From Methanogenium cariaci JCM 10550 (GTDB lineage: Archaea > Halobacteriota > Methanomicrobia > Methanomicrobiales > Methanomicrobiaceae), in the NCBI RefSeq assembly GCF_001315945.1, contig NZ_BBBG01000003.1:116468-180467 (forward strand): a DNA stretch of 64,000 nt. Reading direction: 5' to 3'. Positions 1 to 64,000 of the stretch are shown one piece after another (position 1 is the stretch's first letter; the number at the start of each line of letters is the position of its first letter). Made by a program: the position numbers and the translations under genes. The notes beneath the pieces were generated by a model. The model was not told where the DNA came from. It ran no database searches and worked only from the letters and a program-made list of their open reading frames with translations.

Positions 1-2262
1 AAAATTACTAAACATAATCAGAATCAAAAATATTCAAATTTATGTGTCGAATTAGGTTTTTTCAAAGATCCTGATGAGAATCAGTTTCAACAAACATTAA
101 ACCAGGCAGACGAATTGAAAAAATTGACGGAAACCGACCTTAAGGATCTTGTTACACAAAGAGACAGCGTAATAGAAGCATACCGAAAATTACGAGATTT
201 GTATGAAATCGATAAGAATGAACTGGATTCCTTAACGAGAAGAAAAACCAAAATTCCAGAAAAAAACATACAAATTCGTAAATTAATTCTTACACATTTA
301 GACTTAAAAGATTCTGAATTGCCTTTTGTTGGTGAATTACTCCAAATTAAACCCGAGGAAAAACGTTGAGGGTGCTATCGAACGTGTTCTTCACAGTTTT
401 GGATTGAGCATTCTTGTAGCTGAAAGGTATTACAAAGAAGTCAGCTCTTTTGTTGATAAAACTAATTTAAAGGGGGGGAGAATCGTTTACTTTAAAATTC
501 CTGAAAATATCGTAATTGGAAAAAGAAAAGAGCCTGAAATAAATTCCTTAATCCAAAAGATTGATATTAAAGCAGATTCGGAATTTTACGGTTGGATATC
601 TAACGAATTGTATGGACGATTTAATTACATCTGTTGTGAGTCAATTGAACAATTTCGGAGAGAAGTAAAAGCAATTACAAAAAATGGTCAGATTAAAGGG
701 GGGTCAGGGCCGCCATGAAAAGGATGACGGGAAAAATCTTCATGATCAACGGTATTATGTGTTGGGTTGGAACAATCAAGAGAAGATAAAAATTATCGAA
801 GAAGAGATTGTATCCCTTGAAAAACAGATCAAACAAAACCAAGATAAACAAAAAGCAATCGATAGAAATAAAAATACACTTGAATATCGAAAAACAAATC
901 TTCATGATTTTCTTCAATTCCAGGATCATCATGGTATAAATTGGAAACAAATTGCTGAGGAAATTGAAAAATGTCAGCATGAAATTGAGGAGTTGAAAAA
1001 ATCTTCAGATCTTCTGAAAACATTAAAAACCAAATTAGAATCTATACAAAATCAGATTGAAATTTCAGATAAAGAAAAAAGCGAACTCAAGACCAAGGTT
1101 GGTGAAATCAATTCCAAAATATCTGTTTACAAGGAAGATTTTGACCAATGTAAACAATTGTTATCCGAATTTTCCCTTGATAAAGAGAGCAATCAAGTTT
1201 TGATAATTAATAGCGTTCTTTCAGATGATAAATATGACATAAAAACTATAGGCCATCGTCAGGAAAATGTGAAAAAAACACTTACCAAAACATTTGATGA
1301 TAATGCGAATAGAGAGAGAAAAATCGGTTTCAGACTAATTTCAAAAAATGCAAAAATTCAAACAGGAATATCCTGAAGAAACCGTTGAAATGGTAGCAAC
1401 CATTGAGGCAATTCCTGAATATAGAAAATTCTATGAAAAAATCAAAACAGAAGATCTTCCCCCCCGATATGAAGAACGATTCAAAAAATTACTCCATGAA
1501 GGGACAATCAATGATATTGCATTATTTAAAAGTCGATTAGATTCGAATGCCAAACAGATTGAGAAAAACATTAAAGCGATAAATGATTCCTTAAAAACGA
1601 TTGAATACAATAGTGGCACTTATATTGAATTATTGTCTGAAAAAATTCAGGATATTGATATTAATACTTTCAAAATTCAATTACGTGACTGCCTTCAGGG
1701 TTCCTTTGGTGAAATAAATCCTTACAGCGAAAACAAATTCAACCAAGTGAAAATAATTTTAGACAGATTCAATAGTGGAAATTCCGTTGATATTAACTGG
1801 ACAAATAAGGTGACGGATGTAAGAAATTGGTACTCTTTTTCTGCTGTTGAAAAATATCTTTCCGATAATTCTGAAAAGGAATTTTACAGTGATTCTTCAG
1901 GTAAATCCGGGGGTCAAAAGGAGAAATTGGCATACACAATATTAGCTTCTGCTCTTGCCTATCAGTTTGGCCCTGCAGGAGACAATCCCAAATCAAAATC
2001 ATTCCGGTTTGTTATGATAGATGAAGCATTTGGCCGTGGATCTGACGAAAGTGCACGCTATGGTTTAGATTTATTTAAAACATTAGATTTACAACTCCTG
2101 ATAATTACACCAATGCAAAAAATCCATATTATTGAAAATTATATTAATTGTGTCCATCTCATATCGAATGAAACTGGTAGTAATTCGATGTCGCGAGATA
2201 TCTCAATTCAGGAATACCATAAGACAAGATTAAACCAATCCAATATCAATGTCGGCGAATAA
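1..2262 (+). CDS. jetC: Wadjet SMC-like ATPase JetC, 5'-truncated by window, frame-interrupted
   Basis: SMC/MukB-like ATPase of a Wadjet anti-plasmid system. Seen: long Lys/Glu-rich coiled-coil middle (about 780-1340), then a conserved C-terminal ATPase part with signature SGKSGGQKEKLAY (about 1897-1935) and Walker B FVMIDEAFG (about 2010-2036). The N-terminus and presumably jetA/jetB lie upstream of the window. The coding sequence is one protein spread over four frames. Frame changes lie near 372 (the conserved W-E-G-A-I-E-R needs two more Gs), near 700 (a G6 run) and near 1346 (an A6 run). In-frame G7/C7 runs at 470 and 1449 add one residue each. Family knowledge: JetABC forms a condensin-like loop extruder that delivers circular plasmid DNA to the JetD nuclease. 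Whether the breaks are real decay or sequence errors cannot be decided here. Confidence 0.85.
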
Positions 2263-2265
2263 AAA

Positions 2266-3458
2266 ATGATTCAACCAGAAGAAATAAAAAAAGAGGCTCT
2301 TCGCTGGTACAATGATTTTTTAATTTCGTCAATTCAAGAGCTTTCTTTTTTCCAAAAAATGTTCGCTTTGGAAAAATAAAAGCGTCCAATACCTTGAAAG
2401 ACTTTTCAAAAATTCAGAAAGAAATTGAAAATTTACGTCAAAAATCAAAGGATACCGTTGGTTATGGATATCAAGTCGAATTCATAAAGAGAAATGATCA
2501 AAAAATCGGGGAGCAATCTTTTCCTGAACGTATCTTTTTTGAAGCAAACAATGATTATTTGGAATTTATCCAAAAGGAGAAGGAATATGAGAAATTCATT
2601 AGAGTTACAAACACAATAATTTCTGAAATCCCTGAATTGAAGGAATGGATCATTAAACGTCCTCAAAAAGTTATAGATAATTTTGAAAAAATGGATGATT
2701 TGTTAAAGGTATGTAAATTTTTCATCCATAATCCAAAACCGGATCTGTATATCAGAGAATTGCCATTGGATATATCAACAAAATTTATTGAAGAGAACAA
2801 AGCAACGATCAGAATGCTTCTGGATATTCTCGTTGAAGAGCATATCAATAAAGATGAAAATACTTTTGAAAAGCGTTTCAATCTTAAATACGATGAAAAA
2901 TTAATTCGGATACGAATACTCGATGACCAATTGGCCCAAAAATTATTTTTTGGCATCAATGATCTCAGCATCCCCCACAGCCAATTTGTTTCATTAAATA
3001 TTCCCTGTGAGAAAGTCTTCGTCCTCGAAAATCTTACCAATTTTTCGAACATTTTTAATTTTCTTACATTACCTAATTTAACAGACTCTATAGCAATTTT
3101 TGGAAAAGGTTTTCAGATTGGATTATTAAAAAATGCTCACTGGTTATCTGACAAACAAATTATTTATTGGGGTGATATTGATGCCCACGGTTTTCAAATT
3201 CTCTCTCAAATTAGGGGGGGATATTTTCCCAAAACATGTTCCTGCATGATGGATTTTGAAACGTTTTATGAGTTTGAAGATCTTTCAATAACTGGAATTG
3301 ATACAACAGTAACAGAACTTGCTCATTTAACTCAAGATGAACATCAATTATTCACTCAACTTTTAGAGAGGAATGAAAAAAATCGTTTGGAACAGGAGAA
3401 AATTCCACATCCATATGCTATGAAAAAAATTATTGGTGCTATGAGAGAACAGCATTGA
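2266..3458 (+). CDS. jetD: Wadjet nuclease subunit JetD (DUF3322/DUF2220), one frame break
   Basis: Toprim-like nuclease subunit of the Wadjet system, about 397 residues. It starts at ATG 2266, three bases after the jetC stop. The N-terminal part (PEEIKKEALRWYNDF) matches the DUF3322 start, then the frame stops at 2377. Restoring one C in the run at 2352 joins it to the long second part that begins near residue 38. The C-terminal Toprim part carries YWGDIDAHGFQIL (about 3167-3205), the acidic Mg-binding motif that cuts plasmid DNA in this family. The G7 run at 3213 adds one Gly against the usual R-G-Y-F-P. Same operon as jetC; the next gene is convergent. Confidence 0.87.
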
Positions 3459-3534
3459 AGAGCAAGTTTACCCAAAACAATGTTGGATGCAGGGCCGTCT
3501 TCAATTTTACAGAACTTTCGGCACACTACCTTCA

Positions 3535-5827
3535 CTAAACAGTTCCTTTATAGACAACTTCTAATGCTCTATTAACAAAAGTCCGTAATTCATATTCACT
3601 AACAGTAACTTGATCCGCAGCAGGATCTGTATCATGATGAAATGGCCCGGCATAACTGTTAATATCATTTAATTCATCAACAATGTTTTTTGCATGCCTT
3701 AAAGGAGATGATGGATCAGCATTATTTATTTGGTTAATAACTTTACCAAAAAGCATGTCTTTTTTTATTAATCCTGGAAATCGTCTATGTAGATATCCTT
3801 CCAACATTGGTCGTATAGCTTTTGCCACATCATTTTTGTCAGCAGTGGTGCTACCAGTGGAGAAATCAGTTAAAATACGATGGTGTTTGTAGTAACTCGC
3901 TTCACATTCTCTGTCTAAATCTATAGCACCAAAGTCACTATAATCACCAGACATATGTGCAATTTTTATTGTTAGGATATTTTGCTTATCCTTTTTAGAG
4001 AGTTCATTATGTAAATCATGAAGAAAATATACATCGTGTGCTAAAATTATTAACTGATTACAAGAGGCATATATGTCTTTCAATTCTTGACGAGTTGATT
4101 TTTTCCTATTTAAATCAAAACTACACATAGGATCATCAATAACGATAATTTTTTTAGCAATTTCAGTATCTGATTTGACAATTGCAATAAAAAAAGCAAA
4201 GGCCAAAGTTCGTTTATCTGATTCACTTAATGATGTTCTAAATCCTGATTTTTCACCATTTAAGTTAATATTTTGACCACGAATTTCTAATCCATAATCA
4301 CTTTGAAGGGTTCCAGCACCACCTAAATAGTTATGATCCATTTCCGATATTATAAATGAAGCACCAAATTTTCTAAGAAGATCATTTATGGTTTTTTTAT
4401 ATGAAGCCAGAATAGCTTCCATCTCCGAATCTAATTGACTTTTAGCAGTAATTTTCCTTGTTTCAGCAGATATTTTCTCTATCTTGACTTCCGAAAGTTT
4501 TTTCAATTAACTCAACTACAGTTGGATCATACCTTTTTTTTGACCATTCAATATCTGATATTTGTTTATTCAAATTATCAATATCTTCTGAATCAAGATT
4601 CGTCTTAAATACCTTAATTAAATGAATTGCTTTATCAATTTGTGTGTTACAATTATCTATGCAATTTAAAACTTCATGCCACTTTGATATAATATAATTT
4701 TTATCTGACTCTTGTACTACCTTTTCAAGTGGGTTTGATTGTTTTCTGCTGATTAATTCATTTAAACGGAGATAAATTGACCGAATATTTTCAAGAGCAA
4801 TATCTGATTCAAAAGATAGTTCATCCAAATCTACATCTTCTTTCCAATTATCTGCAGTGATTCTTGATTTAGAAAATGAATTATTTAAATTGTTAACCAC
4901 TTCCTCGCTGCAAAGTTCCTCACATTTTTGTGGTAATTCTTCAATATTTTTTAACAGAAGACGATATTCATGATTAAAATATGTTCTATACGATTTAACT
5001 AAATCTAAACCAGTAATTTCTTGTCCACAATATGGACATTTTTCGTCATTCTCATGAGAAAGACCATTAAATAACCAATTTTCTAAATTAGCTCCTCTTT
5101 GTTTTTTGATATGATCTTTTACTTTTGTTTCAGCTTCTATGTCAACATCTTTTAAAGAAAAATTTAATCCAAAAAATATACTATCAATATCAAAAAGTGG
5201 GATTTCAAGTTTTTTTGGTATTTCTTTGGCTTGAAGATTTACAATGTTCTTAGCATTGTCAAGTCTTGAACGTAATTGTTCTATTTTTTTATCTGGTTCT
5301 TCAATGAATTCAATTTCATCAAATTCTCTTAAAGAAAGACCAATATGATGACCATTTAACTGATCCTCTAAAGACCCAATATTTATTTTAATATTTTGTA
5401 AATTTTCCAATGACAGATTATATTCATTTTGTGTAGTTACTGCTCTGTCACCAATAGCAAATTGAAGTAAGTTTTGTCTCTGATCTGGAGTGATTTGCCC
5501 ACCAGAGTATACATTCCGTTCAACAAAATCTGCATCAAATACAAGTATTTCTTGACGTTTTTCAGACCATTGAGCACCATCAAATGTAACTTTATGACCA
5601 CAATCAAATTGAATATCTACGTATTGTTCATTCTCACTGCCAAGAGTTTTTCTGCTAGTTATTATCGATGGATCTCCGGTAGAACATGATTCAAAGATTG
5701 AAGCCAATGTTGATTTGCCTCTGCAATTATCAGCATAAATTAAGTTCGCTTTTTTAAAACCAAAACTTGAACCTTTTGCACGATGGTACAAACCAACAGT
5801 TTCAATATTATTAATTCTCTCAATCAT
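3535..5827 (-). CDS. AAA_13 ATPase, RloC/PrrC-like, one frame break
   Basis: About 764-residue ABC-type ATPase read from 5827 down to 3535. Seen: P-loop variant DNCRGKSTLAS near residue 36, a long helical middle with a zinc-knuckle CPYCGQE near residue 265, signature LSESDKRTLAFAF, and Walker B KKIIVIDDPMCSFD. The C-terminus has RPMLE (R-x3-E) and, about 55 residues later, FHHD. A CxxC insertion in an AAA_13 protein with an R-x3-E...H tail is the arrangement of RloC anticodon nucleases, which cut tRNA after DNA damage or phage attack; assigning that activity here is inference. Two overlapping frames (break near 4500) become one if a T6 run is read as T5. It faces the Wadjet genes convergently and probably belongs to the same defence island. 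Confidence 0.7.
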
Positions 5828-8018: not shown

Positions 8019-8128
8019 TCACAATAGAGAGAAGAAGTGAACCCTTCCGTACTTTGTCCCACCCACCTTACGGTGGCCTCATCCGTTTCCGGAAGGACTT
8101 ACTCACTAATGTACTACAGGGTAGTACA

Positions 8129-15468: not shown

Positions 15469-16725
15469 TCACTGCAGGTATTTGATCAGGGATTTCAGTT
15501 CTTCCCGGCCTTTCGAATTGTATTTGATCAGGGACGTTAACTCCTTGCGCACGTCCGGATGCAATTTCACGATTTCCCGGATGATCTGAAGCACCGAGAA
15601 CTCCGTTACCTGAAGGTTTTTGACCGAGTTTAACACCGCGTTCAGAACCTCATCATCAAGCGTGATGAAAAATTCTTTCATCCGGTAGTTCCGGGCCAGC
15701 TCCCTGCCCAGAGCGGCATTTCTCCAGGTCGTGTCATAACTCATCAGACACGCTTTCGAACAGTCTTCCTGTCTGATTGCCGCTGTGGCGACCTCTGCGG
15801 CCAGCCTGCCGGTGTACATGGCATGGTAGATACCGCCGCCGGTCATCGGATCACTCAGCCGGGCCGCGTCACCGACAATTAAAAGCCCGTCTGCAACCGT
15901 GCATTCGAGGGGGGGTTTACAGACCGAAACACCCCCCATGATGAGTTCCATCTTCTTACCTTCGGAGAATTTCTCCCGTACAAATGCATCCAGATAGTCT
16001 CTCGCACGGCAGCCTTCACCGGACCTGCTGCCCATAATCCCGATGCCCACATTTGCGGTGCCCTCTCCCTTCGGGAAGATCCAGACATATCCGCCCGGTG
16101 CGATGTCATTGCCGAGATAAATGACCGTCTCATCGGCATTGATATCGATATTGGTCATCAGATACTGGGCACAGGTCTCAAGTTCACGCATCGGGACGGT
16201 GGAGTTGATCCCGCACCAGCGGGCAAACTTTGATTCAACGCCGTCCGCTGCGATCACGACACTCGCATAGATATCCTGTTCCCCCCCGCCGTCGTGCCAA
16301 ACCCGTGCACCCTGCACGACACCATCTGTTATAATGGCATCCACCGCACGGGTCTTCACATAGATTTCCGCACCGGCTCCGGCCGCCATCGCGATCAGAT
16401 CCCGGTCAAAGACTTTGCGATCGAGTACATACCCCACTTCTTTTCTGGTGACCGCCGAGTCAAGAACGACCTTCCGGTTGTCCGGGGGGGCCACGATCAC
16501 TGCCTGTCTGATCTGTGCGGAGACCCATTTCGTGTCGAGTTCGTCGAAAAATTCGTGGATCATATCCTCTCCGATCCCCCCCTCGGCGCAGCGCAGCGGC
16601 ACACCGATGGCCGGGCGCTTCTCAATCAGGCAGACCGAGAGACCGTTCTCGGCCGCGGTTTTTGCCGCAAGGGCACCGCCGGGGGGGCCGCCTCCGATGA
16701 CCAGCAGATCATAATGACTCTTCAT
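15469..16725 (-). CDS. Geranylgeranyl reductase family protein (archaeal lipid saturation)
   Basis: FAD-dependent reductase, 418 residues, intact frame. Seen: N-terminal FAD-binding YDLLVIGGGP(P)GGALAAK, CAEG(G)IGEDM near residue 46, GYVLDRKVFDRDL, GGYVWIFPKGEGTANVGIG, and the second FAD motif LLIVGDAARLSDPMTGGGI. These match digeranylgeranylglycerophospholipid reductase, which saturates the isoprenoid chains of archaeal membrane lipids. Three 7-base runs insert Pro or Gly relative to family consensus, one directly inside the FAD GxGxxG motif. The gene ends in two similar Leu/Lys segments (LTSLIKYNSKGREELKSLIKYLQ, split around the middle Lys-Gly). Confidence 0.88.
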   Translation of the reverse strand: MKSHYDLLVIGGGPPGGALAAKTAAENGLSVCLIEKRPAIGVPLRCAEGGIGEDMIHEFFDELDTKWVSAQIRQAVIVAPPDNRKVVLDSAVTRKEVGYVLDRKVFDRDLIAMAAGAGAEIYVKTRAVDAIITDGVVQGARVWHDGGGEQDIYASVVIAADGVESKFARWCGINSTVPMRELETCAQYLMTNIDINADETVIYLGNDIAPGGYVWIFPKGEGTANVGIGIMGSRSGEGCRARDYLDAFVREKFSEGKKMELIMGGVSVCKPPLECTVADGLLIVGDAARLSDPMTGGGIYHAMYTGRLAAEVATAAIRQEDCSKACLMSYDTTWRNAALGRELARNYRMKEFFITLDDEVLNAVLNSVKNLQVTEFSVLQIIREIVKLHPDVRKELTSLIKYNSKGREELKSLIKYLQ

Positions 16726-28548: not shown

Positions 28549-31389
28549 ATGGACCATATCACCATACGCGGAGCACGGGAACACAACCTACAGAACGTAA
28601 CGCTGGACCTTCCCCCCCGGGACCGGTTTATCGTTATTACGGGTGTCTCCGGCTCCGGAAAATCAACACTCGCCTTTGACACCATATATGCAGAAGGGCA
28701 GCGGCGGTATGTGGAATCCCTCTCCGCATATGCCCGCCAGTTTCTCGGGCTCATGAATAAGCCGGATGTGGACGCCATCGAGGGTCTCTCACCGGCAATA
28801 TCGATAGAACAGAAGACCACCTCGAAAAATCCGCGGAGTACGGTCGGTACGGTCACGGAAATCTATGATTATCTCCGTCTCCTCTATGCACGCATCGGTA
28901 CCGCCTACTGTCCTGAACACGGCATCAAAATCGCATCGCAGTCCCCGGAACGAATTGCGGATGCGATCGAATCCGATTTCTCCGGTGAGGTCACGGTGCT
29001 TTCCCCCCTCATCCGCCAGAAGAAGGGCACCTATCAGCAACTGATAACAGACCTGAACGAAGAAGGCTATGTCCGTGCAAGGGTGGACGGCACGATCATC
29101 CGGACGGATGCAGAAATACAGCTGGAACGGTATGTCAAGCATGACATTGAGATTGTCCTTGACCGGTGCATGAACGATGAACGCTCCCGGCTGGTCGAAG
29201 CGGTGGAGAATGCGGTGCACAAGTCCGATGGCCTTGTGATTGTCACCGGAACGGATGACGAAAAAGAACAGATCTACTCATCCCGCATGGCATGCCCCCC
29301 CGTCTGTGGCATCTCCTTTGAAGAACTCCAGCCGCGGATGTTCTCATTCAACAGCCCGTTCGGTGCCTGTGAGGAGTGCAAGGGACTGGGCATCCGCATG
29401 GAACTGGACCCGGCACTCATCATCCCCCCCGATAAAGAAAAATCAATCTCCGACGGGGGCGGTCGCCCTCTACCGGAATTTCCTCGACGGCTACCGTATC
29501 CAGTACCTTGCGGCGGTGGCCAAACACTACGGGTTCACGATCTTCACGCCGATTGCCGATCTGACCGATGAGCAGTACCAGGCCCTGATGTACGGTTCCG
29601 ATGAGAAGATTGCATTCCGGATGAATATGAAGGACGGTGAGGGACACTGCCCATAACGGCAAATGGGAAGGTCTCTTACCGCAGGCCGAACGCCTCTACG
29701 GCCAGACCAAGTCTGACTACCGCCGCAGGGAACTGGAAAAGTTCATGCGCATCTCTGAATGCCCCTCCTGCCACGGACAGCGGCTCAAGGAGAAGGTGCT
29801 TGCCATTCGTATCGGCGGCAAATCCATCATCGATGTCACCGATCTCTCCATCAGCAAGTGCAGACAATTTTTCAACGCCCTCACGCTCACCGAAAAAGAA
29901 GAAGAGATTGCAAAACAGGTCTTAAAGGAAATTCATTCGCGTCTGGGATTTCTGGAAGAGGTCGGTCTTGGCTACATCACCCTCTCCCGTGCGGCGGGCA
30001 CCCTCTCCGGTGGGGAAGCACAGCGCATCCGGCTTGCGACACAGATCGGTTCCAACCTCATGGGCGTCTTATACGTCCTTGACGAGCCGTCCATCGGCCT
30101 GCACCAGCGGGATAACCACCGTTTGATTGAGACCCTGCAGCACCTGCGGGATCTGGGGGGGAATACGCTCATCGTGGTCGAGCACGACGAGGACACCATC
30201 CGGCAGGCCGACCATGTCGTGGACATGGGACCCGGTGCGGGTATCGACGGCGGCAGGGTCGTTGCCGCAGGCACCCCCCCGGCTGAGATTGAACAGAACC
30301 CGGCATCGCTCACCGGCCGCTACCTCTCCGGTGCGGAAAAAATTTCCGTCCCCCCCGAAACCCGCCGCACCTCCGAAGCATTCATCCACCTGCTGGGCTG
30401 CACGGCAAACAACCTGAAGGATGTGGATGCCCATATCCCTCAGGGTATATTCACCGTTGTCACCGGCATGTCAGGGAGCGGGAAATCAACACTGATCTAC
30501 GACACCCTCTACCGGGCGCTGATGCAGAAGATCTACCAGTCGAACGTCACCCCCCCCGGAAACCACCGGTCGCTCTCGTTTGACGCACCGCCGGACAAGG
30601 TCATCGTCATCGACCAGAGCCCCATCGGCAGAACCCCCCCCGGTCAAACCCGGCCACCTACACCAAGGTCTTTGATGAAATCCGGAAGGTCTTTGCCGCT
30701 ACCAAAGAGGCGAAGTTCGGGGGGGCTATAAGCCCGGCCGGTTCTCCTTTAATGTCAAAGGCGGCCGGTGCGAGGCATGCAGCGGAGACGGTCTCATTAA
30801 AATCGAGATGAACTTCCTGCCGGATGTCTATGTGGAATGCGAGGAGTGCAAAGGCAAGCGTTACAACGCAGAGACACTGGACGTGACGTTCCGGGGTCAT
30901 AGCATTGCGGACGTTCTTGATATGACCATCGATGAAGCGGTGGACGTATTTGAACACCATCCGAAAATCCTGCAGAAACTCCAGACCCTGCAGGAAGTGG
31001 GTCTGGGATATATCAAACTGGGGGCAGAGTTCCACCACGCTTTCCGGCGGGGAAGCGCAGCGCATCAAACTCACCCGCGAACTCTCCAGGAGGGGGACGG
31101 GGAATACCATCTATCTCCTCGATGAACCCACCACCGGTCTGCACTTCCATGATGTGAAAAAGCTGATCGCCGTTCTCAACGAGCTCGTCTCCAAGGGGGG
31201 GAATACGGTCATTGTCATCGAACACAATCTGGATGTGATAAAATCGGCCGATCATATCATTGACCTCGGGCCCGACGGTGGGGAATACGGCGGCGAGATC
31301 CTCATATCCGGTACCCCCCCGGAAGAGGTGGCGGCGGAAGAGAAGAGCTACACCGGCGCATACCTCCGCCCCCCCTGTTGCAGATATGA
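28549..31389 (+). CDS. uvrA: Excinuclease ABC subunit UvrA, frame-interrupted
   Basis: Damage-sensing ATPase of nucleotide excision repair, about 940 residues. Seen: first Walker [21 protein letters not shown], zinc fingers ([34 protein letters not shown]), signatures [14 protein letters not shown] and [15 protein letters not shown], Walker [15 protein letters not shown] and [14 protein letters not shown]. Frame changes near 29457 (G5 for G4), 29645, 30634-30720, 31020 (G5 for G4) and 31371 (C7 for C5). In-frame Gly additions turn [10 protein letters not shown] into [11 protein letters not shown] and K-G-N-T-V into KGGNTV. The stop overlaps the uvrC start as ATGA. A bacterial-type gene, common in methanogens by ancient transfer. 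Confidence 0.95.
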
Positions 31390-32959: not shown

Positions 32960-34889
32960 TCTGAAAGCGGACTTTTCTCCGCAGGGGGGGTCACAACCCG
33001 ATGCAATACGGGCGCTGGTAGCGGGCATCAGTGACAAGAACCGGTTTCAGACCCTGATGGGCGTTACCGGTTCGGGGGGGAAGACGTTTACGATAGCAAA
33101 CGTGATTGCGCAGACACAGAAGCCGACACTGGTGCTGGCCCACAACAAGACCCTTGCCGCACAACTGTACAATGAGTTCCGGGACTTTTTCCCGGAGAAC
33201 CGTGTAGAATATTTTGTTTCGTATTATGATTACTATCAGCCGGAGTCCTACATCCCCCAGAGGGATCAGTACATTGAAAAGGATGCGGCCATCAACCCGA
33301 AAATCGAGCAGATGCGTCTTGCAGCCACCGCCTCTCTTCTCTCCCGTGATGATGTCATCGTCATCGCATCGGTATCCGCCATATACGGTCTGGGGAACCC
33401 GGAGAACTTCGAGGGGCTGGGGTTTGAAGTCACGCAGGGAGAACAGATAAACCGGGCAGAGATCATCTCCCGCCTGATTGACATCCAGTACGAGCGCAAT
33501 GACATGGAACTCCAGCCAGGGCGGTTCCGGGTAAAGGGGGGGGACACCATCGACCTCATACCCGGATCCGGGACGGACATTATCAGGATTGAATGCTTCG
33601 GGAGTGAGGTTGAGCGGATCACGGAGATTGACAAAATAACCCATCAGCCAACCGGATACTTCCGTATTATTTTGTGTATCCCGCCCGGCATTATGTGATA
33701 CCAGAAGAGGAGAAGGCCGGTGCAATTCTGGAGATGAGACAGGAGCTGGAGGAGACGCTGCCCACTCTGGGCTTATTGAAGCACATCGCCTCCGCCAGCG
33801 GACGCTGTATGATATCGAGATGATCGAGGAGACCGGCTACTGCAAAGGTATCGAGAACTATTCCCGATTTTTTGACCACCGGAAAAAGGGAGAAAAACCC
33901 TTCTGCCTGCTGGACTATTTCCCGGATGACTTCCTTTTGGTCGTTGATGAAAGTCATCAGACGCTGCCGCAGGTACGGGGGGATGTATAAGGGGGATTAT
34001 TCCCGGAAAAAATCCCTTGTCGAGTATGGGTTCCGGCTGCCTTCCGCGTTTGACAACCGCCCTTTGATGTTTAATGAGTTTGAAGAATACCTGAAGACAG
34101 CAATTTTCGTGTCGGCGACACCCGGCCCGTATGAAAAAGAGCATTCTTCCGGCATCGTTGAACAGATCATCCGTCCGACCGGGCTGGTTGACCCGGAGGT
34201 CACGATACGCCTGGTGAAGACCCAGATACCGGATGTCTGTGCAGAGATCCAAAAGACGATCGCGGCAGGCGAGCGGGTACTGATCACCACCCTGACCAAG
34301 AAGCTGGCAGAAGAACTGACCGAATTCCTTGCCGGGAAGGGAATAAAGACCCGCTATCTGCATTCAGAGATCCAGACCATCGAGCGCACCGAGATCATCC
34401 GGGAACTCCGGCTGGGGATGTTTGATGTGCTCGTCGGCATCAACCTGCTCCGGGAAGGTCTTGACATTCCCGAAGTGAGTTTCATCGGCATTCTTGACGC
34501 GGATAAGGAGGGCTTTCTCCGGGATGCCCGGAGCCTCATCCAGACCATCGGGCGGGCGGCACGCAATGATCACTCCCATGTCGTGTTGTACGCAGACAAA
34601 ATGACGGATTCCATCAAAATCGCGGTGGAGGAGACTGACCGGCGGCGGGCGATACAGGTGGCATACAACCGGGAGCATGGCATCACTCCGGTTACCATTC
34701 ATAAACATCCGGGAAAAAGAGGTTGAGATTCAGGATACCAAACATATCCCCCCCCGTTCTGAACTGCCCAATCTGATCATTCAGGTTGAAACGGAGATGC
34801 ATGAGGCGGCAGAACAGCTGGACTTTGAACGGGCGATTGTGCTGCGGGAGAAGCTGAAGAAACTGAATACGGAATTAGAGAAAGAGTGA
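32946..34889 (+). CDS. uvrB: Excinuclease ABC subunit UvrB, frame-interrupted
   Basis: Helicase-like damage verifier, about 645 residues. Seen: Walker A GVTGSG(G)KTFT with an extra Gly from a G7 run at 33072, motif [17 protein letters not shown], the beta-hairpin region [35 protein letters not shown], motif V/VI regions [17 protein letters not shown] and QTIGRAARN, and the C-terminal UVR motif ([20 protein letters not shown]) that contacts UvrC. Frame changes near 33668 (a T missing), 33770 (GGG for GGGG), 33977 (G6 for G4) and 34700. An insertion in the P-loop would be expected to inactivate the enzyme if real. Confidence 0.94.
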
Positions 34890-36254: not shown

Positions 36255-38118
36255 AAGTCGGACTCATCGGCAATCCCAATGTCGGCAAATCATTAATCTT
36301 TACCCAGTTAACGGGTATCGGGGTGGAGATCAGTAATTTCCCCCCCGGCACCACCATTGATATTGAATCCGGCGGTGTCTGTTATCAGCGGGAAATTGTT
36401 GAACTGGTGGATTTTCCCGGCATCTATTCCCTTGACGGCATCTCCGACGAGGAGACGAGTGTTCGCCGGTATCTGCAGGAAGAGCATATCGATGTCATCG
36501 TTCCGGTGCTGAATGCATCAAATCTGGAACGCAACCTCTATCTGCTGCTTCAGGTGGCCGAGTATCAGCTTCCCGGTGTCGTCGTCGTCAACATGGTAGA
36601 TGAATCCGAAAAGGCCGGAATCGAGATCGATTTCGCCCGGCTCTCGGATATGCTTGGATGCAAAGTCATTGCCGCCGCGGCGTCAGAAGGCAGAAATGTC
36701 GGTGACATCATCCCTGTGCACTTTCTGACGCACGGACCATGAACTACACGGTGCCCTATGGCCAGCATATCGAAGCCGCCATCCGGAGCCTTGAAAAGAT
36801 TCACGGGTGTTCCCGGCGGGAGGCCCTTGACGCACTCCAGCATCTGGGAACGGATGCCGACCTGCTGGACTCCGCTGCCACCATTGCAACAGAGATTGAA
36901 GAGGAGCACCAGATGTCGGTGCACCAGATCATTGCGACCAACCGCCACAATGCTGCAACGAAGATTGCCGATGACATTACGCTACTAAAGGATCACAAGA
37001 AAAAACCCGATCTGGACAGCCTCTTGACACGGGCGTTTCCGGGTATCCCGATACTCATCGTCCTGCTCTTTGCAACGCTCATGACCGTCTTCTTTGTCGG
37101 CTCGTTTCTGGAAGAGATCATCGTCGAACTCTTCGATATCTATCTGGTTGCCCCTCTCCTGAGTGCCGGGTTCTCCCCCTTCTGGGAACAGATCCTCTTC
37201 TCGCTCATTCTTGCCGTGCAGGCGGGACTGGGGGGGATTGCCTTTCCCTTTGTCTTTGTGTTCTATATTCTCATATCCATCCTCGAGGATTCCGGATATA
37301 TGACGCGAGCGGCATTCCTCGCCGACCGGGCGATGCACCATGTGGGCATGCACGGCCAGGCACTGATACCCATGATCCTCGGACTTGGCTGCAACGTCCC
37401 TGCCATCATGAGCATACGCCAACTATCAAAACGGGAACGTATCATCGCTTCCGTCCTTATAACCATGGTGCCCTGTTCGGCACGCACCGTCATTATCGCA
37501 GGCATCGTTGCCATGTTCGTCGGTGTCGCCTGGGCCTTCTCCATCTATCTGGTCGTCTTTATCCTGATCATCCTGACCGGCATCGTTCTCACCCGCATAA
37601 CGCCCGGAGAACAGTTCGGGATGATCCTTGAGATGGCCCCCCCCTGAGAAAACCTCAGCCGATGCAGACCCTGAAGCGGGCCTGGCTGCACATGAAAGAG
37701 TTCCTCTTTATTGCCATGCCCCCCCTACTTCTGGTCAGCAGTGTCTTTCTGGGGGGTGCTCCAGTATACGGGAATTATTCAGGCCTTTCAGGATATTTTC
37801 GCACCGTTTATGGAGACGGTGCTCGGCCTTCCGCCCTATGCGTCAACCGCACTGATCTTTGGTATTCTCAGAAAGGAGATGGCGTTTGAGACCCTTGCGA
37901 TTCTTGCAGGCACCGCAGACCTCGGCTCGGTGATGACAGGCCTTCAGCTCTATGTCTTTGCCATCGTCAGTGTGCTCTTCGTGCCGTGTATATCAACGAT
38001 TGCCGTTCTCTACCGGGAGATGGGACTGAAAACCGCTCTCCTCGTCTCGGCATACACCCTGACCCTCGGCATGGGCATCGGAACGGTGATTAATCTTTTA
38101 GCAGTCTCGTTCCTCTGA
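36251..38118 (+). CDS. feoB: Ferrous iron transporter FeoB, frame-interrupted
   Basis: GTP-gated Fe(II) importer in the membrane, about 620 residues. Seen: G1 GLIGNPNVGKSLIF, G2 NFP(P)GTT, G3 VDFPGIYSL, G4 VVNMVD, then membrane helices with GLGCNVPAI and MTRAAFLADRAMHHVGMHG gate motifs, and a second Gate domain (IFGILRKEMAFETLAIL). Frame changes near 36735 (GG for GGG), 37636 (C8) and 37752 (G6 for G5); the G2 insertion comes from the C7 run at 36340. No separate feoA; that domain is carried by the upstream regulator. Confidence 0.92.
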
Positions 38119-56620: not shown

Positions 56621-57374
56621 ATGAGTAACAGCAATGGATTAGGGGGGGATCTGCTCGGAGGAGATGACAAAAAGATTCTTTCAACGGGATATCCTGATAT
56701 TGATAAGAAACTGGCCGACGGTCTGCCTCTGGGATCTGACGCTTATTGAAGGGGGGGAAAATGACAGTGGAAAAAGTGTCATTACCCAACAGATCATCTG
56801 GGGGGGCGGACTAAAAGGCAGCATGAATGTGGCTCTCTATACTTCAGAAAATACCTCAAAAAGTTTTTTGGGTCAGATGGAATCCATGAGTCTTGATATC
56901 GCTGATTACTTTGCATGGGGGGGATATCTCAAGGTTTTTCCCATGCATACTATCGGGTTTGAGTGGGGGGGTGAAAAAGAGATGCAGGGCATCCTAAAGA
57001 GAATTATTCAGCACATGCGTGATTCAGATTCTGATGTGATTATTATTGATTCTCTAACCCTGTTGACCGAAGCCACAAATTCAGCAGACCTGCTTGCATT
57101 TCTTACCAACTGCAAAACCCTCGTTGATACCGGAAAAACAATACTCATCACCCTCCACACATACGCTTTTCAGGAGGATACCCTCGTCAGAATTCGTTCC
57201 ATCTGTGATGCTCATCTGATGATGAAACGGGCACTTGTCGGTCAAAAATATATCATGGTCATGGAGGTTGTTAAAATTCGTGGTGCACGGAAGACAACCG
57301 GAAATATCGTCTCATTTGAAGTGCATCCTGGTTTTGGCATGAAGATTATTCCGATATCAATGGCACGGGTCTAA
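56621..57374 (+). CDS. arlH: Archaellum ATPase-regulating protein ArlH, one frame break
   Basis: KaiC/RecA-like ATP-binding motor component, about 250 residues. Walker A is written TLIEGGENDSGKS: the G7 run at 56749 adds a Gly to the usual I-E-G-E-N-D-S-G-K-S. Walker B SDVIIIDSLTLL. The frame breaks at 56732 (GGATCTGACG lacks two bases of G-S-L-T-L). Further G7 runs at 56641, 56800, 56917 and 56964. ATG 56621 follows a strong SD (AGGAGGGAC). ArlH binds ArlI and controls filament assembly and rotation. Confidence 0.9.
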
Positions 57375-57378: not shown

Positions 57379-59262
57379 ATGGGAACATTAAGTGCTTCAG
57401 TTAATCTTCCATTCACACCGGAAGAGACGGATGAATCAATATCCTATGATGAAAAGTCCATTGAAGCCAGTGCATTATACCGGATGCTTCCTGCAAACGC
57501 CAAAGAATATGTAAAACAGGCCCCCTCATCTCCTTGAATATCTCCATATCTTTCCGGTGAATACCTTTGGTATTCCTCTGTTTTTCTCTGAACTGTCCCG
57601 TGACGTAAAAAAATGGAGAACCCGAATATCATCTATCCGGTAAGTGATATGACATTTATTCACATCTTTCCGGATGAAAATGATGTGAGAAATTTCTATA
57701 TTCCCATTGAACCCTCATTTCTTCATAGTGTCACCGAACTAATGGGTCATGTTGAAAAAAACTTGTGGATTTCATTGACAGTTTTGAAGAAGACCCCCAT
57801 TACTGATGAAGAACGCATTGAAGTGCTGCGCCGGGTAATGCGGGAAATTACCCATGTCATCGGACCTGATGAGAACATAAAAACACTCACCACAGAGAAT
57901 GACAGTGAAAAGGGGGGGCTGAAAGAAAAGATTATTGGATTCCTGAATACTGATTTTTCTAAAGAGAAAGAACTGAAGAAAGAACAGAAAAAAGGAAAAC
58001 TCCCCCCCGATGTTCCCACAACTCCGGAAGGGAAACTCATTCTCACTCAGATGGAATTTAATTCGATAGAATATCTGCTTATTCGTGATAAAGTCCAGAT
58101 GGGTATTCTTGAACCATTCCTGAACGATCCCTATATTGAAGATATTACCTGTGATGGTGTAGGCCCGATATTTATTGAGCATAAAATTTTTAAAGGGATG
58201 AAGTCTGCCATTGAATTCAGGAATTCCAACGAAATTGATGATTTTGTTATCCGTATGGCAGAACGTATCAAACGACCACTTACCTATCGTGACCCCATTG
58301 TTGATGCTACCCTGCCTGACGGATCAAGGATTAATATCGTATATGGCACGGAAATCAGCAAACATGGTTCAAACTTTACTATCCGTAAATTCAGCGAAGA
58401 ACCAGCCAGTATTCTTCAGCTGATTGAATGGAAGACAACTGACTACATGACGGCTGCCTATCTCTGGATCTGTCTGGAGTTTGGCATGTCACTGTTTGTC
58501 AGTGGTGAAACGGCATCAGGAAAGACCACCAGCCTGAACGCCATTACCACCTTCCTTGCACCGGAAAATAAGATTGTAACCATTGAAGATACTCCCGAAC
58601 TGACCGTGCCCCCCCATAAAAACTGGACGCGTGAGGTATCCAAAGGAAAAGGAAGCGGTGAAGGAGAGGGAGGGTCGGTTACCATGTTTGACCTGCTACG
58701 TGCGGCTCTGCGACAACGGCCGAACCAGATTCTTGTCGGTGAAATCAGAGGTTCCGAGGGTGCGGTGGCATTTGGTGCAATGCAGACGGGCCACCCGGTG
58801 ATGAGTACCTTCCACGCTGCTTCCGTTGAAAAACTCATTCAGCGTCTCTGCAGTGACCCGATTAATATTCCTATCAGCCATGTAGATAACCTGAATCTTG
58901 TTGTTATTCAGAGTGCAGTACGCAGACCGAACGGAGACATGGTGCGCAGAATGCTTTCTGTCAATGAACTGGTCGGATATGACCCTGAGACCGGTGGTTT
59001 TTCCTTTGTTGCAATGTTTGTCTGGAACCCGATTACCGATACGTTTGATTTCCCGGGAAACGGAAGTAGTTTTCTTCTGGAAAATAAAATTGCCACACTC
59101 CTTGGACTTCCCGAAGAGCGGAGAGCAGAGATCTATGATGAAGTGACAAAGAGAGCCCGGATGTTAGAGAGACTCCATAAAGCAGGATACATGGGATTCT
59201 GGGATCTGTACCATATGATAACCAAGATCAAGAAACAGGGCCTTCTAAAAATTGAGATCTGA
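57379..59262 (+). CDS. arlI: Archaellum motor ATPase ArlI, frame-interrupted at N-terminus
   Basis: Hexameric secretion-type ATPase driving assembly and rotation, about 628 residues. N-terminal part from ATG 57379 (MGTLSASVNLPFTPEETDE) joins the main frame through two run-length changes: C5 for C4 at 57522 and A7 for A8 at 57607. Seen: DPYIEDITCDGVGPIFIEH, Walker A VSGETASGKTTSL, Asp box VTIEDTPEL, VP(P)HKNWTREV, Walker B ILVGEIRGSEG, His box MSTFHAASVEKLIQRL. C7 at 58610 adds a Pro next to the conserved P-H-K-N-W. Confidence 0.94.
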
Positions 59263-59265
59263 CAC

Positions 59266-60878
59266 ATGTTTGAGTCATTTACCGAAAACATCCGTGAAAA
59301 GTCAGGGGGGAAATTACCATTTGAAGATGCCTGGGCGAATCTCAAGGCATTCTTTGCCCAGGTCTCAGAAAACAAAAAAATGGGTTCTGACATTCTTTTC
59401 ATGGTAACGTATATGGCTTCCATTATCACTGCTGACATATCGAGACCAGAAATTTTTGCGTTCACTGCAACACGAAAAGAGTACATCACCTCAAAGTACA
59501 TCGCCAAGGTTGAAACATTCGTTAAACGCTGGAATTATAACTATGCAAAAGCTCTCGAAATGGTAGCTGACCGGACGAAAAATCCCATCCTTTCCAGTAT
59601 GCTGATACGCTACGGGAACTCAATCGGTTCGGGTGTTCCGGATAATGAATTTCTTGTCCTTGAACTGTCTACGGTAAGAATTGTCTACCGAAACCATTTC
59701 GAACAGGGCATAGAGATGCTGAAGAAATGGGGGGGGATGCATACATCGCTCTGATGCTTTCAGCGACAATTGTCAGTATCATCATCATGGTCTCAATTGC
59801 TATTTATACACCTGATGATTTAGATGCAACACTGAACACTTCGTATCTTCTGACCATCGGTATTGCGGTCTTTGGTATCGGAACAATGTACCACTCAATT
59901 CCTGGTGACCAGAAATGCCATGAACTCCCGGGTCAGGGCAGTTATGAACAAAGAATGATACGTAAAATGGAACGATTTATTGTTCCTACGGTGATCATTA
60001 CCTCTGTTCTGCTCCTCATCGGAGGGTTCAACGCAGGCCTGATTTATTTGATCATTGGAGTTCTGCTTGCACCTCTGGGAATATTCGCCGTCATTGATGA
60101 CACGAAAATTATTGGACGTGATGCTGACTTTTCCGTATTTATCCGGAGTCTGGGGGGGACGATCATGGGAGGAAAGGGTCTCACCGTACCCTATGCCCTT
60201 GCCGAAGTTGATATAAAAACCCTGAAAGTGCTGTACGAATTTATTCAGTCTGTGTATTCCAAACTGAATCTGGGTCTGGATGAAAATCTGGTATGGGAGC
60301 GGTTTATCGATGAATCCGGAAGTAATCTCATATCAAAGTATCTCAATATTTTCCGTGACTCAATAAAACTGGGTGGAAATCCTTCAGAGGTTGCACGGGT
60401 TGTCAGTACTTCTATGCTTGAACAGACGCTGTTACGCGAAAAACGGGAAATGCTTGCGACAGGATTTATTGTGCTGCTTATTCCCATGCATGTAGCAATG
60501 GTTGCAATTTTTATTTTCCTGTATCAGATATTACTTACGATGTCCCATGCGGTAACTGCCGTGATGGCTTCATTTGATCAGGTCAGTGACGCAATGAGCA
60601 GTACGACCGCGTCAATGGGGGGTTCGATGTCAGGCATGGTGAATATCTTTGTTAATTTTCCCGAAGATAAAATGGGGGGGACATATATAGCTATTGTTCT
60701 GTTAATAATAACTGTTGCGAATATCATGGCAGGAAAGATTGTAAAGGGCGGTGCAAACTATCTGTATTACGCATTTGGAAGTATATTATTCAGCCTCACT
60801 GGTATTCTTTTAATCGTGACGCCGTTTATTGTCGAGATGCTGTTCCAGATTCCGATATTCAATGGAGGGGGGGTATAA
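59266..60878 (+). CDS. arlJ: Archaellum membrane platform protein ArlJ, one frame break
   Basis: Polytopic membrane core of the motor, about 536 residues: T2SSF-like cytoplasmic domain (GSDILFMVTYMASIITADIS, YNYAKALEMVADRTKNP), helices, a second T2SSF domain (SLGGTIMGGKGLTVPYALAE, GGNPSEVARVVSTSML) and C-terminal helices. The frame changes at 59730, where a G8 run should be two bases shorter to give KKWGDAYIALMLSATI. In-frame G7 runs at 60151, 60674 and 60868. Starts four bases after arlI. Confidence 0.93.
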
Positions 60879-62167
60879 TGAACGAAGTATTACGTCGGTT
60901 ATTGATGATGGTCGGTATTGTTGCCATCGGGACTTTTCTGATTTTGTCTGATGCATCATTAATGATGACAATGGCTGCATCAGTTGCTTTTGGAATTATT
61001 ATGATGATGGGCCTTGGGTTATTAAAAGTTGAGGACTTCAAAAAAATTACCCACCCAAGAAGCATTAAAACCGGAAATGCAAAAAAGACTGCGAAAACAG
61101 AGAAACCACAACCCAAAAAAGAACGGAAAAACTTCTTTTCCAAAGGGGTATTTTCACGGTTTAAGAAAAATAATCGGAAGAATCAGAAAGATAAAAAGAA
61201 AGACCGTTTGGAAAAAGAACCAACCGAAACAAAAAATACCCGGATATCAGCGGGTCTGGCTGCTGCCATCGGTTCATTCAATACCACAATAGCGAAAGCC
61301 CGCGATAAAAAACATACCGAAAAACTTGATTCCCTTTTGAATACAGTCATTGATGAACCGATCACATCACCATCTGATGCAAAGGAACCCTCTGATGAAA
61401 TCGATTCTTTTGACGATGAAGATTTTGGAGACCTTGACTCTCTTGAAATTGAGGGTGAGGAGTTGTCTTTTGATTCTGATATGGATATGTCGGCTACATC
61501 TTCATCCCTTCAGAATAATGGTTCGGATGAATTCAATCTGGATAATGAAATAAATTCCATCCTGCTTGCTGCCGGAGATACCCCCCCTGAGGGGGATGAC
61601 GGGGAATTTGCGATACAGGCCATTGATGATGGACTCGATGAAGATTCATTTATCAATCTCCCGGACGCTGTCTCAGAGACTCAGGACGCTAATCCGAATG
61701 ATTCGCTGAACGAACTGGAAAATCTCACCGGATTTGAAACAGATAGTTTAGGTGCAGATGAATTTTCTGATTTTGACGCAATTGACCTGGATGAACTGGA
61801 GACAGATGATCTCTCCATTGAAACAGATGAGATCATCATTGAAGAAGAGGAAGAGGTTGATGACGGGGCTGTTCTTCCTGATGACAACATAGCGTTGGGA
61901 GATACAAAGATCTCCGAAGATGAACAGTCTCATCTTGGGAATACCAATTTCAGCGATCTTGATCTTGATGAAACTGTCTCATTTTCCCGAAAAAATGAAT
62001 ATGACGACATCCTCAGTGTTCTTGAATCTGATATTAAAACGGTTAAAAAGGGACCTGAGCCAAGTATTCTTCGTGATATGAAAGATATTCATGTAGAAGC
62101 AAAAGATCTGGTTGGAGAGCTTGAAACAGTGCTCAGTTCACTGGGGGGGGAAAATCCCGGAAAATAA
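60878..62167 (+). CDS. Unknown membrane-anchored charged protein in the archaellum operon
   Basis: 429 residues, intact; its ATG overlaps the arlJ stop. Two N-terminal helices (RLLMMVGIVAIGTFLILS; MTMAASVAFGIIMMMGLGLL), a strongly basic stretch (about residues 60-115: many Lys, e.g. KKERKNFFSKGVFSRFKKNN), then about 230 residues rich in Asp/Glu/Ser (EEEEEVDDGAVLPDDNIAL), and a short C-terminal helical domain (LRDMKDIHVEAKDLVGELETV). I recognise no family. Position between the motor and cheF suggests a membrane-tethered cytoplasmic partner of the motor or taxis proteins. Confidence 0.7.
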   Translation: MNEVLRRLLMMVGIVAIGTFLILSDASLMMTMAASVAFGIIMMMGLGLLKVEDFKKITHPRSIKTGNAKKTAKTEKPQPKKERKNFFSKGVFSRFKKNNRKNQKDKKKDRLEKEPTETKNTRISAGLAAAIGSFNTTIAKARDKKHTEKLDSLLNTVIDEPITSPSDAKEPSDEIDSFDDEDFGDLDSLEIEGEELSFDSDMDMSATSSSLQNNGSDEFNLDNEINSILLAAGDTPPEGDDGEFAIQAIDDGLDEDSFINLPDAVSETQDANPNDSLNELENLTGFETDSLGADEFSDFDAIDLDELETDDLSIETDEIIIEEEEEVDDGAVLPDDNIALGDTKISEDEQSHLGNTNFSDLDLDETVSFSRKNEYDDILSVLESDIKTVKKGPEPSILRDMKDIHVEAKDLVGELETVLSSLGGENPGK

Positions 62168-62190
62168 CCGAGCAGGATGAGGAGTAAAGA

Positions 62191-63001
62191 ATGAAAACAA
62201 TTCCAGTTAAATTTGAAGCCGAAGGGAAATGGATATCAGCCAAGATCGGAATCGATGAAACAACCATCCATCTGCCTGAACCAATAAATACACAGATCCC
62301 GATAAAATCAATTGATAATGTGCAGCAAAGAAAGAATCTTCTCACCATCTCTGTTGCGGAAAAAGATTACCGAATTGCCACCGTACCCAAAGCACTGGCC
62401 ATACTCAAACGGGTTATTCTTATGGGGGTGTTCAGGCTATCGCCTCATGGCATTTTTTATGTCTCCTGCCATCAGGGGGCGGGGGGGTGATGGTGAGTGA
62501 TGCAAAATGGGAAAAAGGTGCAGTTACCGTCCTTAAAACCGGCATATGGTTTGTGAGCCAGAATCATCAGATCTGTATTCCGATAGCAGATGTTTCCGCG
62601 ATTGAACAGACAAAAAGAGAGGTACAGGGAACTGACAAAGAGGTCGTAAAGATTGATCATGTGGAAAGCGGAGACGTTTCAACAAGTTTTGTGCTCTGTC
62701 CCGCAACAACCCTGCAGGTGCTCTATAATTACCTGACTGATGCCACCAAAGATAGTTCACTGGATGGAGAACTTGACCCCCCCTTTCGGGTCAGGTGGCC
62801 ATGCTGGTCTACAGCGGAATGGACACTCATTCTATTGAAGGAATGCTTGAGAAATCCCAGCGAGATATAGATGCTGTTTATGACAGAATGCTGGGACTGG
62901 GACTGGTAGAGGTAGTCCAGACACGCCGTGAGGTAAAACTGACAACAAAAGGTGTCAGGTTTGTGACAGAAGCGGTGAAACCACCCACCCCCCCTCAGTA
63001 A
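62191..63001 (+). CDS. cheF: Taxis adaptor CheF, frame-interrupted
   Basis: Archaea-specific adaptor linking CheY-P to the ArlC/D/E ring, about 270 residues. Seen: VKFEAEGKWISAKIGIDETTI (in parts), SIDNVQQRKNLLTI, MAFFMSPAIRGG, ISQ-type strand WFVSQNHQICIPIADV, and a C-terminal helical wing (MLEKSQRDIDAVYDRMLGLGLVEV, in parts; LTTKGVRFVTEAV). Frame changes near 62425 (G5), 62475-62486 (G5 and G7) and 62778 (C7). Lies directly before cheY, as in haloarchaea. Confidence 0.8.
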
Positions 63002-63070
63002 ATCCCCCCCTATTTTAATCACATTTGTCAAATATAATTTTTTGACAGGTATTATTCCAAAATACCCAAT

Positions 63071-63080
63071 TAAATATATT
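63071..63080 (+). promoter_or_regulatory. TATA box of cheY
   Basis: TAAATATATT about 40 bases before the cheY start, after a C7-containing spacer that follows cheF; suggests that the che genes have their own promoter. Confidence 0.45.
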
Positions 63081-63115
63081 TATTACATATGTGACAAAAC
63101 GTTATTAGATTATAT

Positions 63116-63477
63116 ATGGGAAGGATTCTGATTGTCGATGATACCCTCTTTATGAGAACACTTCTTAAAAATATCCTGTTTTCCGGGAATCATGATATTG
63201 TGGGTGAGGCTGAGAACGGAGAAGACGCAATCCAAAAATATCAATCGCTTCAACCGGATCTTGTGACGATGGATATTGTTATGCCGAAAAAAATGGGATT
63301 GAAGCATTAAAAGAAATTATGGCAATTAATCCGGGAGCAAAAGTAATTATGTGCACTGCTGTCGGACAGGAACAGATGGTCAAACTTGCCATCAAAACAG
63401 GTGCCAAAGGATACATTGTAAAGCCATTTCAGGCACCTAAGGTGTTGGAAGAAATAAATAACGTATTAAAATCGTAA
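63116..63477 (+). CDS. cheY: Chemotaxis response regulator CheY, one frame break
   Basis: Single receiver domain, about 120 residues: ILIVDDTLFMRTLLKNIL (acidic pair DD), phosphoacceptor in LVTMDIVMPKKNG, Thr switch VIMCTAVGQ, and Lys in YIVKPF. The frame changes at 63289 in an A7 run; eight As give M-P-K-K-N-G-I-E-A-L. Phospho-CheY binds CheF and changes archaellum rotation. Confidence 0.9.
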
Positions 63478-63487
63478 ACAGGTCATT

Positions 63488-64000
63488 ATGCTCAGGGTTC
63501 TCATTGTCGATGACTCAGTATTCATCCGGACTGTTTTATCAGACCTACTCAATCGTGCTCCGGATATTGAAGTTATTGGAACGGCATGCAATGGTGTCGA
63601 AGCCCTTCCGATGATTACAGAGCTTAAGCCGGATGTAATGACACTTGATATCCAGATGCCCCGGATGGATGGGATTGAAACACTGCGACAGATCAAGAAC
63701 CTGTCATACAAACCCAAAATTCTGATATTAAGTACGCTGCTTCTCGAGATGCCGAACTGACCTACAAGGCCCTGCGTCTGGGTGCCCATGATTTCATGCT
63801 GAAACCGCGCAATATCTCAAAGATGCGGGGGGGTATTGAAAATGAACTGACGGCAAAGCTGAAACAACTGATCAGTATATCAGAACCAAAGAAATGTCTG
63901 CCAAATACTGATGTTCCTGCAGAAAATATCATTTTAATCGGTTCATCTGCAGGTGGACCCCCGATGCTGGACCAGATCTTTTCAAATCTAAAAGGAGAAC
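63488..64000 (+). CDS. cheB: Chemotaxis methylesterase CheB, 3'-truncated by window, one frame break
   Basis: N-terminal receiver domain (LRVLIVDDSVFIRTVLSDLL, MTLDIQMPRMDGIETL, LILSTLASRDAELT after correction, HDFMLKP), a linker, and the start of the methylesterase domain (IILIGSSAGGPPML with catalytic Ser). The frame changes near 63731 (one T missing: ACGCTGCTTC should read ACGCTTGCTTC). Removes methyl groups from chemoreceptors. Starts 11 bases after cheY. Confidence 0.88.

What the first reader, a model, noticed from the sequence alone, without database searches (positions are those of the whole stretch)
1..64000. Pervasive G/C runs of exactly about seven bases
Hand count: roughly 190 runs of six or more Gs or Cs, most exactly seven, some eight, none of nine or more noticed. 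At about 48% GC one expects about 20 runs of six or more and about 5 of seven or more. In conserved proteins a seven-run usually stands where the family has four bases, giving one extra Gly or Pro: UvrB GSGGKT (33072), ArlH IEGGENDSGKS (56749), FeoB NFPPGTT (36340), Uvr[12 protein letters not shown] (30157) and KGGNTV (31193), M28 NGGED (14383), geranylgeranyl reductase GGGPPGG (16681), ArlI VPPHKNW (58610). Unexpanded four-runs coexist (14079, 14188, 30010, 31282), so it is not a simple global rule. A consensus artefact is my preferred reading, but a preference for +3 in coding and non-coding DNA alike is unusual for known error modes.
Basis: partly seen in the sequence, partly recalled or inferred. 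Interest (0 to 1): 0.75.

Follow-up and report, generated by a model that had tools for sequence, protein, structure and literature searches.

The report
Homopolymer miscalls in a draft genome
The odd excess of seven-base G and C runs in this methanogen genome is a sequencing or assembly error that turns many true four-base runs into seven, because the same insertions sit in conserved sites of its ribosomal and transfer RNAs where a living cell could hardly tolerate them.

Summary
In detail: the window has 211 G/C runs of six or more, 161 exactly seven, 30 of eight, none longer. The genome has 8,110 runs of exactly seven; six congeners have 87-186; the next highest of 391 other genomes in a phylum sample has 905. 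Site by site against congeners, G/C runs of four are written as seven in about half of cases and stay four in most of the rest; most runs of five or six become seven or eight; A/T runs hardly change. The same change occurs in the genome's 23S rRNA, beside the peptidyl-transferase centre, and in the T arms of 4 of 5 tRNAs examined. Flanking sequence barely predicts which fours change (AUC 0.52-0.54), and strand and neighbour effects are weak or absent. I conclude that this is a consensus artefact, probably of a long-read pipeline; a miscalibrated run-length model is the likeliest step, but platform and step are inferred, since no reads were available. No biological feature is needed to explain it.

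The parts
1..64000 (.). whole window: 161 G/C runs of exactly seven and 30 of eight, in coding and non-coding DNA
   Evidence: one search run-length table; coding/non-coding split
33074..33080 (+). G7 in the UvrB Walker A (P-loop) region; congener G006 has G4
56751..56757 (+). G7 in arlH; congener G003 has G4
36340..36346 (+). C7 in feoB; congeners G001 and G005 have C4
30155..30161 (+). G7 in uvrA; congener G001 has G4
31195..31201 (+). G7 in uvrA; congeners G003 and G006 have G4
58609..58615 (+). C7 in arlI; congeners G003 and G006 have C4
14383..14389 (.).
16681..16687 (.).
30012..30015 (+). unexpanded G4; congeners G003, G005 and G006 also have four
31280..31283 (+). unexpanded G4; the four congeners aligned have GGTG here

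Best explanation
The runs of seven are consensus errors of this one draft assembly (genus of Methanogenium sp. MK-MG, 52 contigs). Shown: G/C runs that are four in congeners are written as seven at about half of the sites (49-58% in five comparisons), most runs of five and six as seven or eight, while A/T runs hardly change; the same happens in rRNA and tRNA genes; flanking sequence barely predicts which sites are hit. Inferred: the assembly was made from error-prone long reads, and a step that decides run length separately from base identity (a run-length or repeat-count polisher, or a basecaller or polisher model that does not fit the chemistry) gave a wrong modal length to G and C runs. A miscalibrated run-length table could jump from 4 to 7 without passing through 5 and 6, because length is chosen as one discrete label. 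My confidence is about 0.97 that it is an artefact and about 0.5 that run-length decoding, rather than the basecaller itself, is the step.
For: Window against G003: reference G/C4 (60 sites) -> 4 in 23, 5 in 4, 7 in 30, 2 or 3 in 3; reference 5 (9 sites) -> 5 in 2, 7 in 5, 8 in 2; reference 6 (4 sites) -> 8 in 3, 6 in 1. A/T4 -> 4 in 101 of 101. Against G001 16 of 31 and against G006 17 of 35 fours are seven. rRNA locus against G001: G/C4 (23 sites) -> 7 in 12, 4 in 9, 5 in 1, 6 in 1, and A/T4 -> 4 in 21 of 21; against G006 14 of 24 fours are seven. 23S alignment: 16 insertions relative to both complete congeners, 15 in G/C runs, nine of them +3, among them the conserved ...AAGA|CCCCGTG... and ...CC|GGGGATAA... 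segments. G7 or G8 in the T arm of 4 of 5 tRNAs examined. 8,110 runs of exactly seven against 87-186 in six congeners and at most 905 in the 391 other genomes of the phylum sample; sampled stretches of the 905 genome are 65-69% GC with a steadily falling run-length curve. Flank-based prediction of 4 against 7: cross-validated AUC 0.52 (regression) and 0.54 (tree) on 1,142 runs. Successive runs: p = 0.26. Runs of four or more per kb: 5.34 in the window, 5.60 and 4.65 in two G003 stretches. Completeness 59% at full genome size and scattered single-base indels against G003. A/T8 written as 7 at 2 of 3 sites against G003. The Shasta/MarginPolish paper says that a Bayesian repeat-count model appears sensitive to calibration errors (PMC7483855, passages).
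Against: No raw reads or assembly metadata could be seen, so platform and software are unknown. In the one nanopore study of which I read passages, runs below five are mostly right and longer ones slightly under-called, with some large overestimates (PMC8486125), so a +3 mode is not the usual one. No second genome with the same signature was found, and none was sought outside the phylum. The change is not wholly uniform: non-coding fours become seven less often than coding ones (4 of 14 against 26 of 46, G003; non-coding is defined roughly, as outside open frames of 150 aa or more); runs on the G strand changed slightly less often than on the C strand (4+5 against 7+8, p = 0.03; 4 against 7 alone p = 0.11) and neighbours within 150 bases show a weak link (p = 0.07). 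G001 and G006 stretches, lower in GC, have only 3.30 and 3.65 runs of four or more per kb. Open-frame coverage is lower than in most but not all congener stretches. Many of the single-base indels lie in poorly aligned stretches and could be real divergence.
Confidence: 0.95

Rival explanations
1. Real biology: the organism expanded G4/C4 tracts to seven by replication slippage or a mutator mechanism, with +3 kept in genes because it keeps the frame.
For: +3 is the commonest change and keeps frames; an intact long frame such as arlI (549 aa) carries it; coding fours are changed more often than non-coding ones (26 of 46 against 4 of 14, G003).
Against: The same +3 appears in rRNA and tRNA, where frame is irrelevant and the sites are highly conserved. 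A/T runs hardly change. None of six congeners shares it. Slippage should give a spread of lengths, but seven is a sharp peak: 20 sixes and no nines in the window, and 15 G9 matches genome-wide, eight of them from one long run. Frame-breaking 5->7, 4->5 and 3->1 changes also occur.
Confidence: 0.01
2. The artefact is triggered by real DNA chemistry: modified bases in G/C tracts disturb a nanopore signal and the basecaller or polisher overcalls length.
For: Restricted to G/C runs and, in the genomes sampled, to one genome.
Against: Modification motifs usually have sequence specificity, but 4 against 7 is barely predictable from ten flanking bases each side (AUC 0.52-0.54); about 35% of the runs of four or seven in the sample are fours, and these occur with all nine flanking-base pairs; both strands are affected.
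Confidence: 0.04
3. Short-read artefact: two-colour chemistry reading loss of signal as G, or k-mer assembly collapse.
For: It would be G-related.
Against: The changes are interior to contigs, mostly +3, and found as G and as C runs; scattered single-base indels against G003 look more like long-read errors. Not otherwise tested.
Confidence: 0.02

Closest known systems
Homopolymer-length errors of nanopore-based consensus (PMC8486125, passages read; PMC8011154 and PMC8812927, search listing with start of abstract only)
   Same: Run-length error that depends on base and length, spread over the genome; some long A/T runs shortened (A/T8 to 7).
   Different: In the passages read, runs below five are mostly right and longer ones slightly under-called; here G/C fours are lengthened by three, with unlengthened fours beside them.
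Repeat-count decoding in run-length consensus (MarginPolish/Shasta, PMC7483855, passages read)
   Same: Length is chosen as one discrete label per position from an error matrix, and the authors note sensitivity to calibration errors; this could give jumps without intermediates.
   Different: No evidence that this program was used; a 4-to-7 mode is not described in the passages read.
Homopolymeric tracts as a regulatory mechanism in prokaryotes (PMC2831843, start of abstract in a search listing only)
   Same: Long homopolymers inside genes.
   Different: Those are described as evolved tracts in genes; here rRNA, tRNA and non-coding DNA are hit too, with one dominant length.

Membership tests
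assembly/consensus artefact | relatives carry the ordinary length at homologous sites | tested here: met
   G/C4 in relatives is 7 here at 12 of 23 (rRNA locus, G001), 14 of 24 (rRNA locus, G006), 30 of 60 (window, G003), 16 of 31 (G001) and 17 of 35 (G006) sites
assembly/consensus artefact | affects functionally conserved sites where the change should be lethal | tested here: met
   23S core; tRNA T arms, 4 of 5 examined, three of the five chosen for length; lethality itself is inferred
assembly/consensus artefact | confined to one assembly, not to a clade | tested here: met
   1 of 60 and 1 of 392 genomes, in both cases this one; genomes outside the phylum not searched
assembly/consensus artefact | raw reads disagree with the consensus | not testable with these tools
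   no reads available
run-length decoding error | length error depends on base type and length, not on context | tested here: met
   G/C, hardly A/T; AUC 0.52-0.54; small strand, neighbour and coding/non-coding differences remain
run-length decoding error | a run-length polisher was used | not testable with these tools
biological tract expansion | shared by close relatives | tested here: not met
   six congeners have 87-186 sevens
biological tract expansion | spares rRNA and tRNA | tested here: not met

The most novel reading that the evidence does not exclude
The trigger is real: this archaeon carries a so far undescribed DNA modification in G4/C4 tracts that makes a nanopore pipeline overcall them, so the artefact marks a modified-base system.
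Probability: 0.03. Interest if true: 0.55.

Novelty: not a real feature. Interest (0 to 1): 0.08.

Why it matters
It is a data-quality warning. The record adds a spurious Gly or Pro to conserved motifs (UvrB P-loop, ArlH, FeoB), and its frame-breaking length errors may help to explain 59% completeness at full genome size. A simple check, the ratio of exact seven-runs to exact four-runs of G and C, would flag such assemblies before they enter protein families or homopolymer surveys. I see no biological novelty.

Tried and rejected
Rejected: real tract expansion (rRNA and tRNA carry it; congeners do not). Rejected: a sequence-context rule for which fours are changed (logistic regression and decision tree near chance). 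Rejected: patchy polishing (successive runs p = 0.26, within 150 bases p = 0.07; the share of sevens among fours and sevens is 0.58-0.74 in the window and nine other stretches). Checked and set aside: the next highest genomes, G263 (905 sevens) and G246 (709); three stretches of each that were measured (54 kb and 52 kb; 65-69% and 54-64% GC) show run lengths falling steadily without a peak at seven. Three short G263 contigs fetched were not measured.

A small match of high protein identity (L112, 94% over residues 179-549) was looked at as a possible near relative, but its DNA aligned at 73% and gave no G/C four-site to compare.

Literature: nine searches listed no paper that by title or start of abstract describes a 4-to-7 G/C artefact or the source of this genome; they cover only open-licence PMC papers, list at most 20 each, and one search gave no hit. 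Passages of PMC8486125 and PMC7483855 were read; the other papers were seen only in search listings.

Not pursued: genomes outside the phylum for a second case; a random sample seemed unlikely to meet one. Orthologous tRNAs of relatives were not aligned; the tRNA argument rests on the arm geometry (five-pair T stem, recalled).

Full report
Observation. In the 64,000-base window G and C runs of exactly seven number 161 and of eight 30, with none longer; runs of exactly four are only 92, against about 346 expected from a first-order Markov model of the same sequence. A and T runs fall off steadily. The feature is genome-wide: G000 (2.69 Mb, 52 contigs, completeness 59%) has 8,110 runs of exactly seven, while six genomes of the same genus have 87 to 186. 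In a sample of 392 genomes of the phylum, this one included, it stands alone; the next are 905 in a 1.5 Mb genome and 709 in a 2.6 Mb genome, whose measured stretches (three each) are 54-69% GC with a normal falling run-length curve. Runs of nine or more are almost absent genome-wide: 15 nonamer matches, eight of them from one run of 16. Ten other stretches of G000 show the same peak at seven.

What changed. I aligned the window to stretches of three congeners and compared run lengths where both flanking bases agree. Against G003 (85% identity, 34.8 kb aligned) 60 sites have a G/C run of four in the relative: here 23 have four, 30 seven, 4 five, and 3 two or three. Nine sites of five become seven (5), eight (2) or stay (2); four sites of six become eight (3) or stay (1). 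Against G001 16 of 31 fours are seven, against G006 17 of 35. A/T runs of four stay four at 101 of 101 sites (G003), 77 of 81 (G001) and 65 of 67 (G006). G/C runs of three are unchanged at 330 of 340 sites (G003); five are one base only. The change occurs in coding and non-coding DNA, but less often in the latter (26 of 46 and 4 of 14 four-sites against G003; G001 had two non-coding four-sites, neither changed, and G006 one, changed; non-coding here means outside open frames of 150 aa or more in the relative). The density of runs of four or more is 5.34 per kb here, 5.60 and 4.65 in two G003 stretches of like GC, and 3.30 and 3.65 in lower-GC stretches of G001 and G006. So ordinary four-runs appear to have been re-lengthened rather than new runs made.

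Named sites. Six align to congeners, and at each at least one congener has exactly four: UvrB, ArlH, FeoB, UvrA twice, ArlI. Two (M28, reductase) had no aligned relative in the stretches held.

The decisive test. The 23S rRNA gene of this genome (G000:C40, cut at its 3' end by the contig end) was aligned with those of two complete congeners, a partial one that covers the first half, and E. coli. There are 16 insertions relative to both complete congeners; 15 lie in G/C runs, nine are +3, four +2 and three +1. Several sit in sequence that every row covering them shares, E. coli included: AGCCCCGTA, GGGGTGAAAGGCCA, AAGACCCCGTG and CCGGGGATAA. The last two are at about 2049 and 2430 of an E. coli gene annotated as 2,891 bases; with the usual 2,904-base numbering (recalled) they fall beside A2062 and at about 2444-2447, next to A2451 of the peptidyl-transferase centre (recalled). 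Three extra bases there are not credible in a working ribosome. In the rRNA locus as a whole, G/C4 became seven at 12 of 23 sites and A/T4 stayed four at 21 of 21 (G001). I looked at five tRNA genes of G000, three of them chosen because the match was unusually long: two tRNA-Lys, one tRNA-Arg and one tRNA-Thr have seven or eight Gs on the 5' side of the T arm, opposite three or four Cs; tRNA-Ser has none. The number of tRNA matches is normal (43 against 45, 47 and 44).

How it works. Whether a run is four or seven can hardly be predicted from ten bases on either side (1,142 runs; cross-validated AUC 0.52 and 0.54). The state of the previous run says little (p = 0.26; p = 0.07 within 150 bases), and strand matters little (p = 0.11 for four against seven, p = 0.03 with fives and eights added). 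So there is no motif and no clear patch, but a base-type-specific shift of length with intermediate lengths mostly skipped. That fits a consensus step that picks run length as a discrete label from an error table not suited to the data. The paper on Shasta and MarginPolish describes such a step and says the Bayesian repeat-count model appears sensitive to calibration errors (PMC7483855, passages). A study of nanopore reads reports runs below five as mostly right and longer ones as slightly under-called, with some greatly over-called even at short lengths (PMC8486125, passages). That this assembly used such a step, or long reads at all, is inferred from scattered single-base indels against G003 (many in poorly aligned stretches), A/T8 written as seven at 2 of 3 sites and low completeness at full size. 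Shorter open frames point the same way but not cleanly: the window has 30% of bases in open frames of 300 aa or more, nine other G000 stretches 0-56%, eight congener stretches 29-76%.

Placement. Full-length matches to the window's 549-aa protein in the named collection are best in Methanogenium sp. MK-MG and Methanogenium isolate CSMAG_280 (91 and 90%); their contig lengths (44,057 and 57,295) equal those of G003:C24 and G005:C14, which the genome search puts in the same genus as G000.

Verdict. The most novel reading not excluded is that a DNA modification in G/C tracts triggered the miscalls; the near lack of any context rule makes it unlikely (0.03).

Noticed in passing
window 8035-8108 (-): Match to the Rfam family DUF3800-X RNA (84.3 bits, gathering 38.2), the only Rfam hit in the window at gathering score.
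   Followed up: no
window 29649, 34706, 56736, 24297, 25102: Rare opposite change: G/C runs of three in G003 appear as one base here (5 of 340 sites), a two-base loss.
   Followed up: partly
G000:C1:253499-253514: A single run of 16 Gs, the only one that long among the genome's nonamer matches.
   Followed up: no
window and nine of the ten G000 stretches: G runs of four or more outnumber C runs on the contig + strand (854 against 648); gene orientation was not checked.
   Followed up: no
window 1-64000: Window GC is 0.47, lower than the ten other G000 stretches sampled (0.49-0.56).
   Followed up: no
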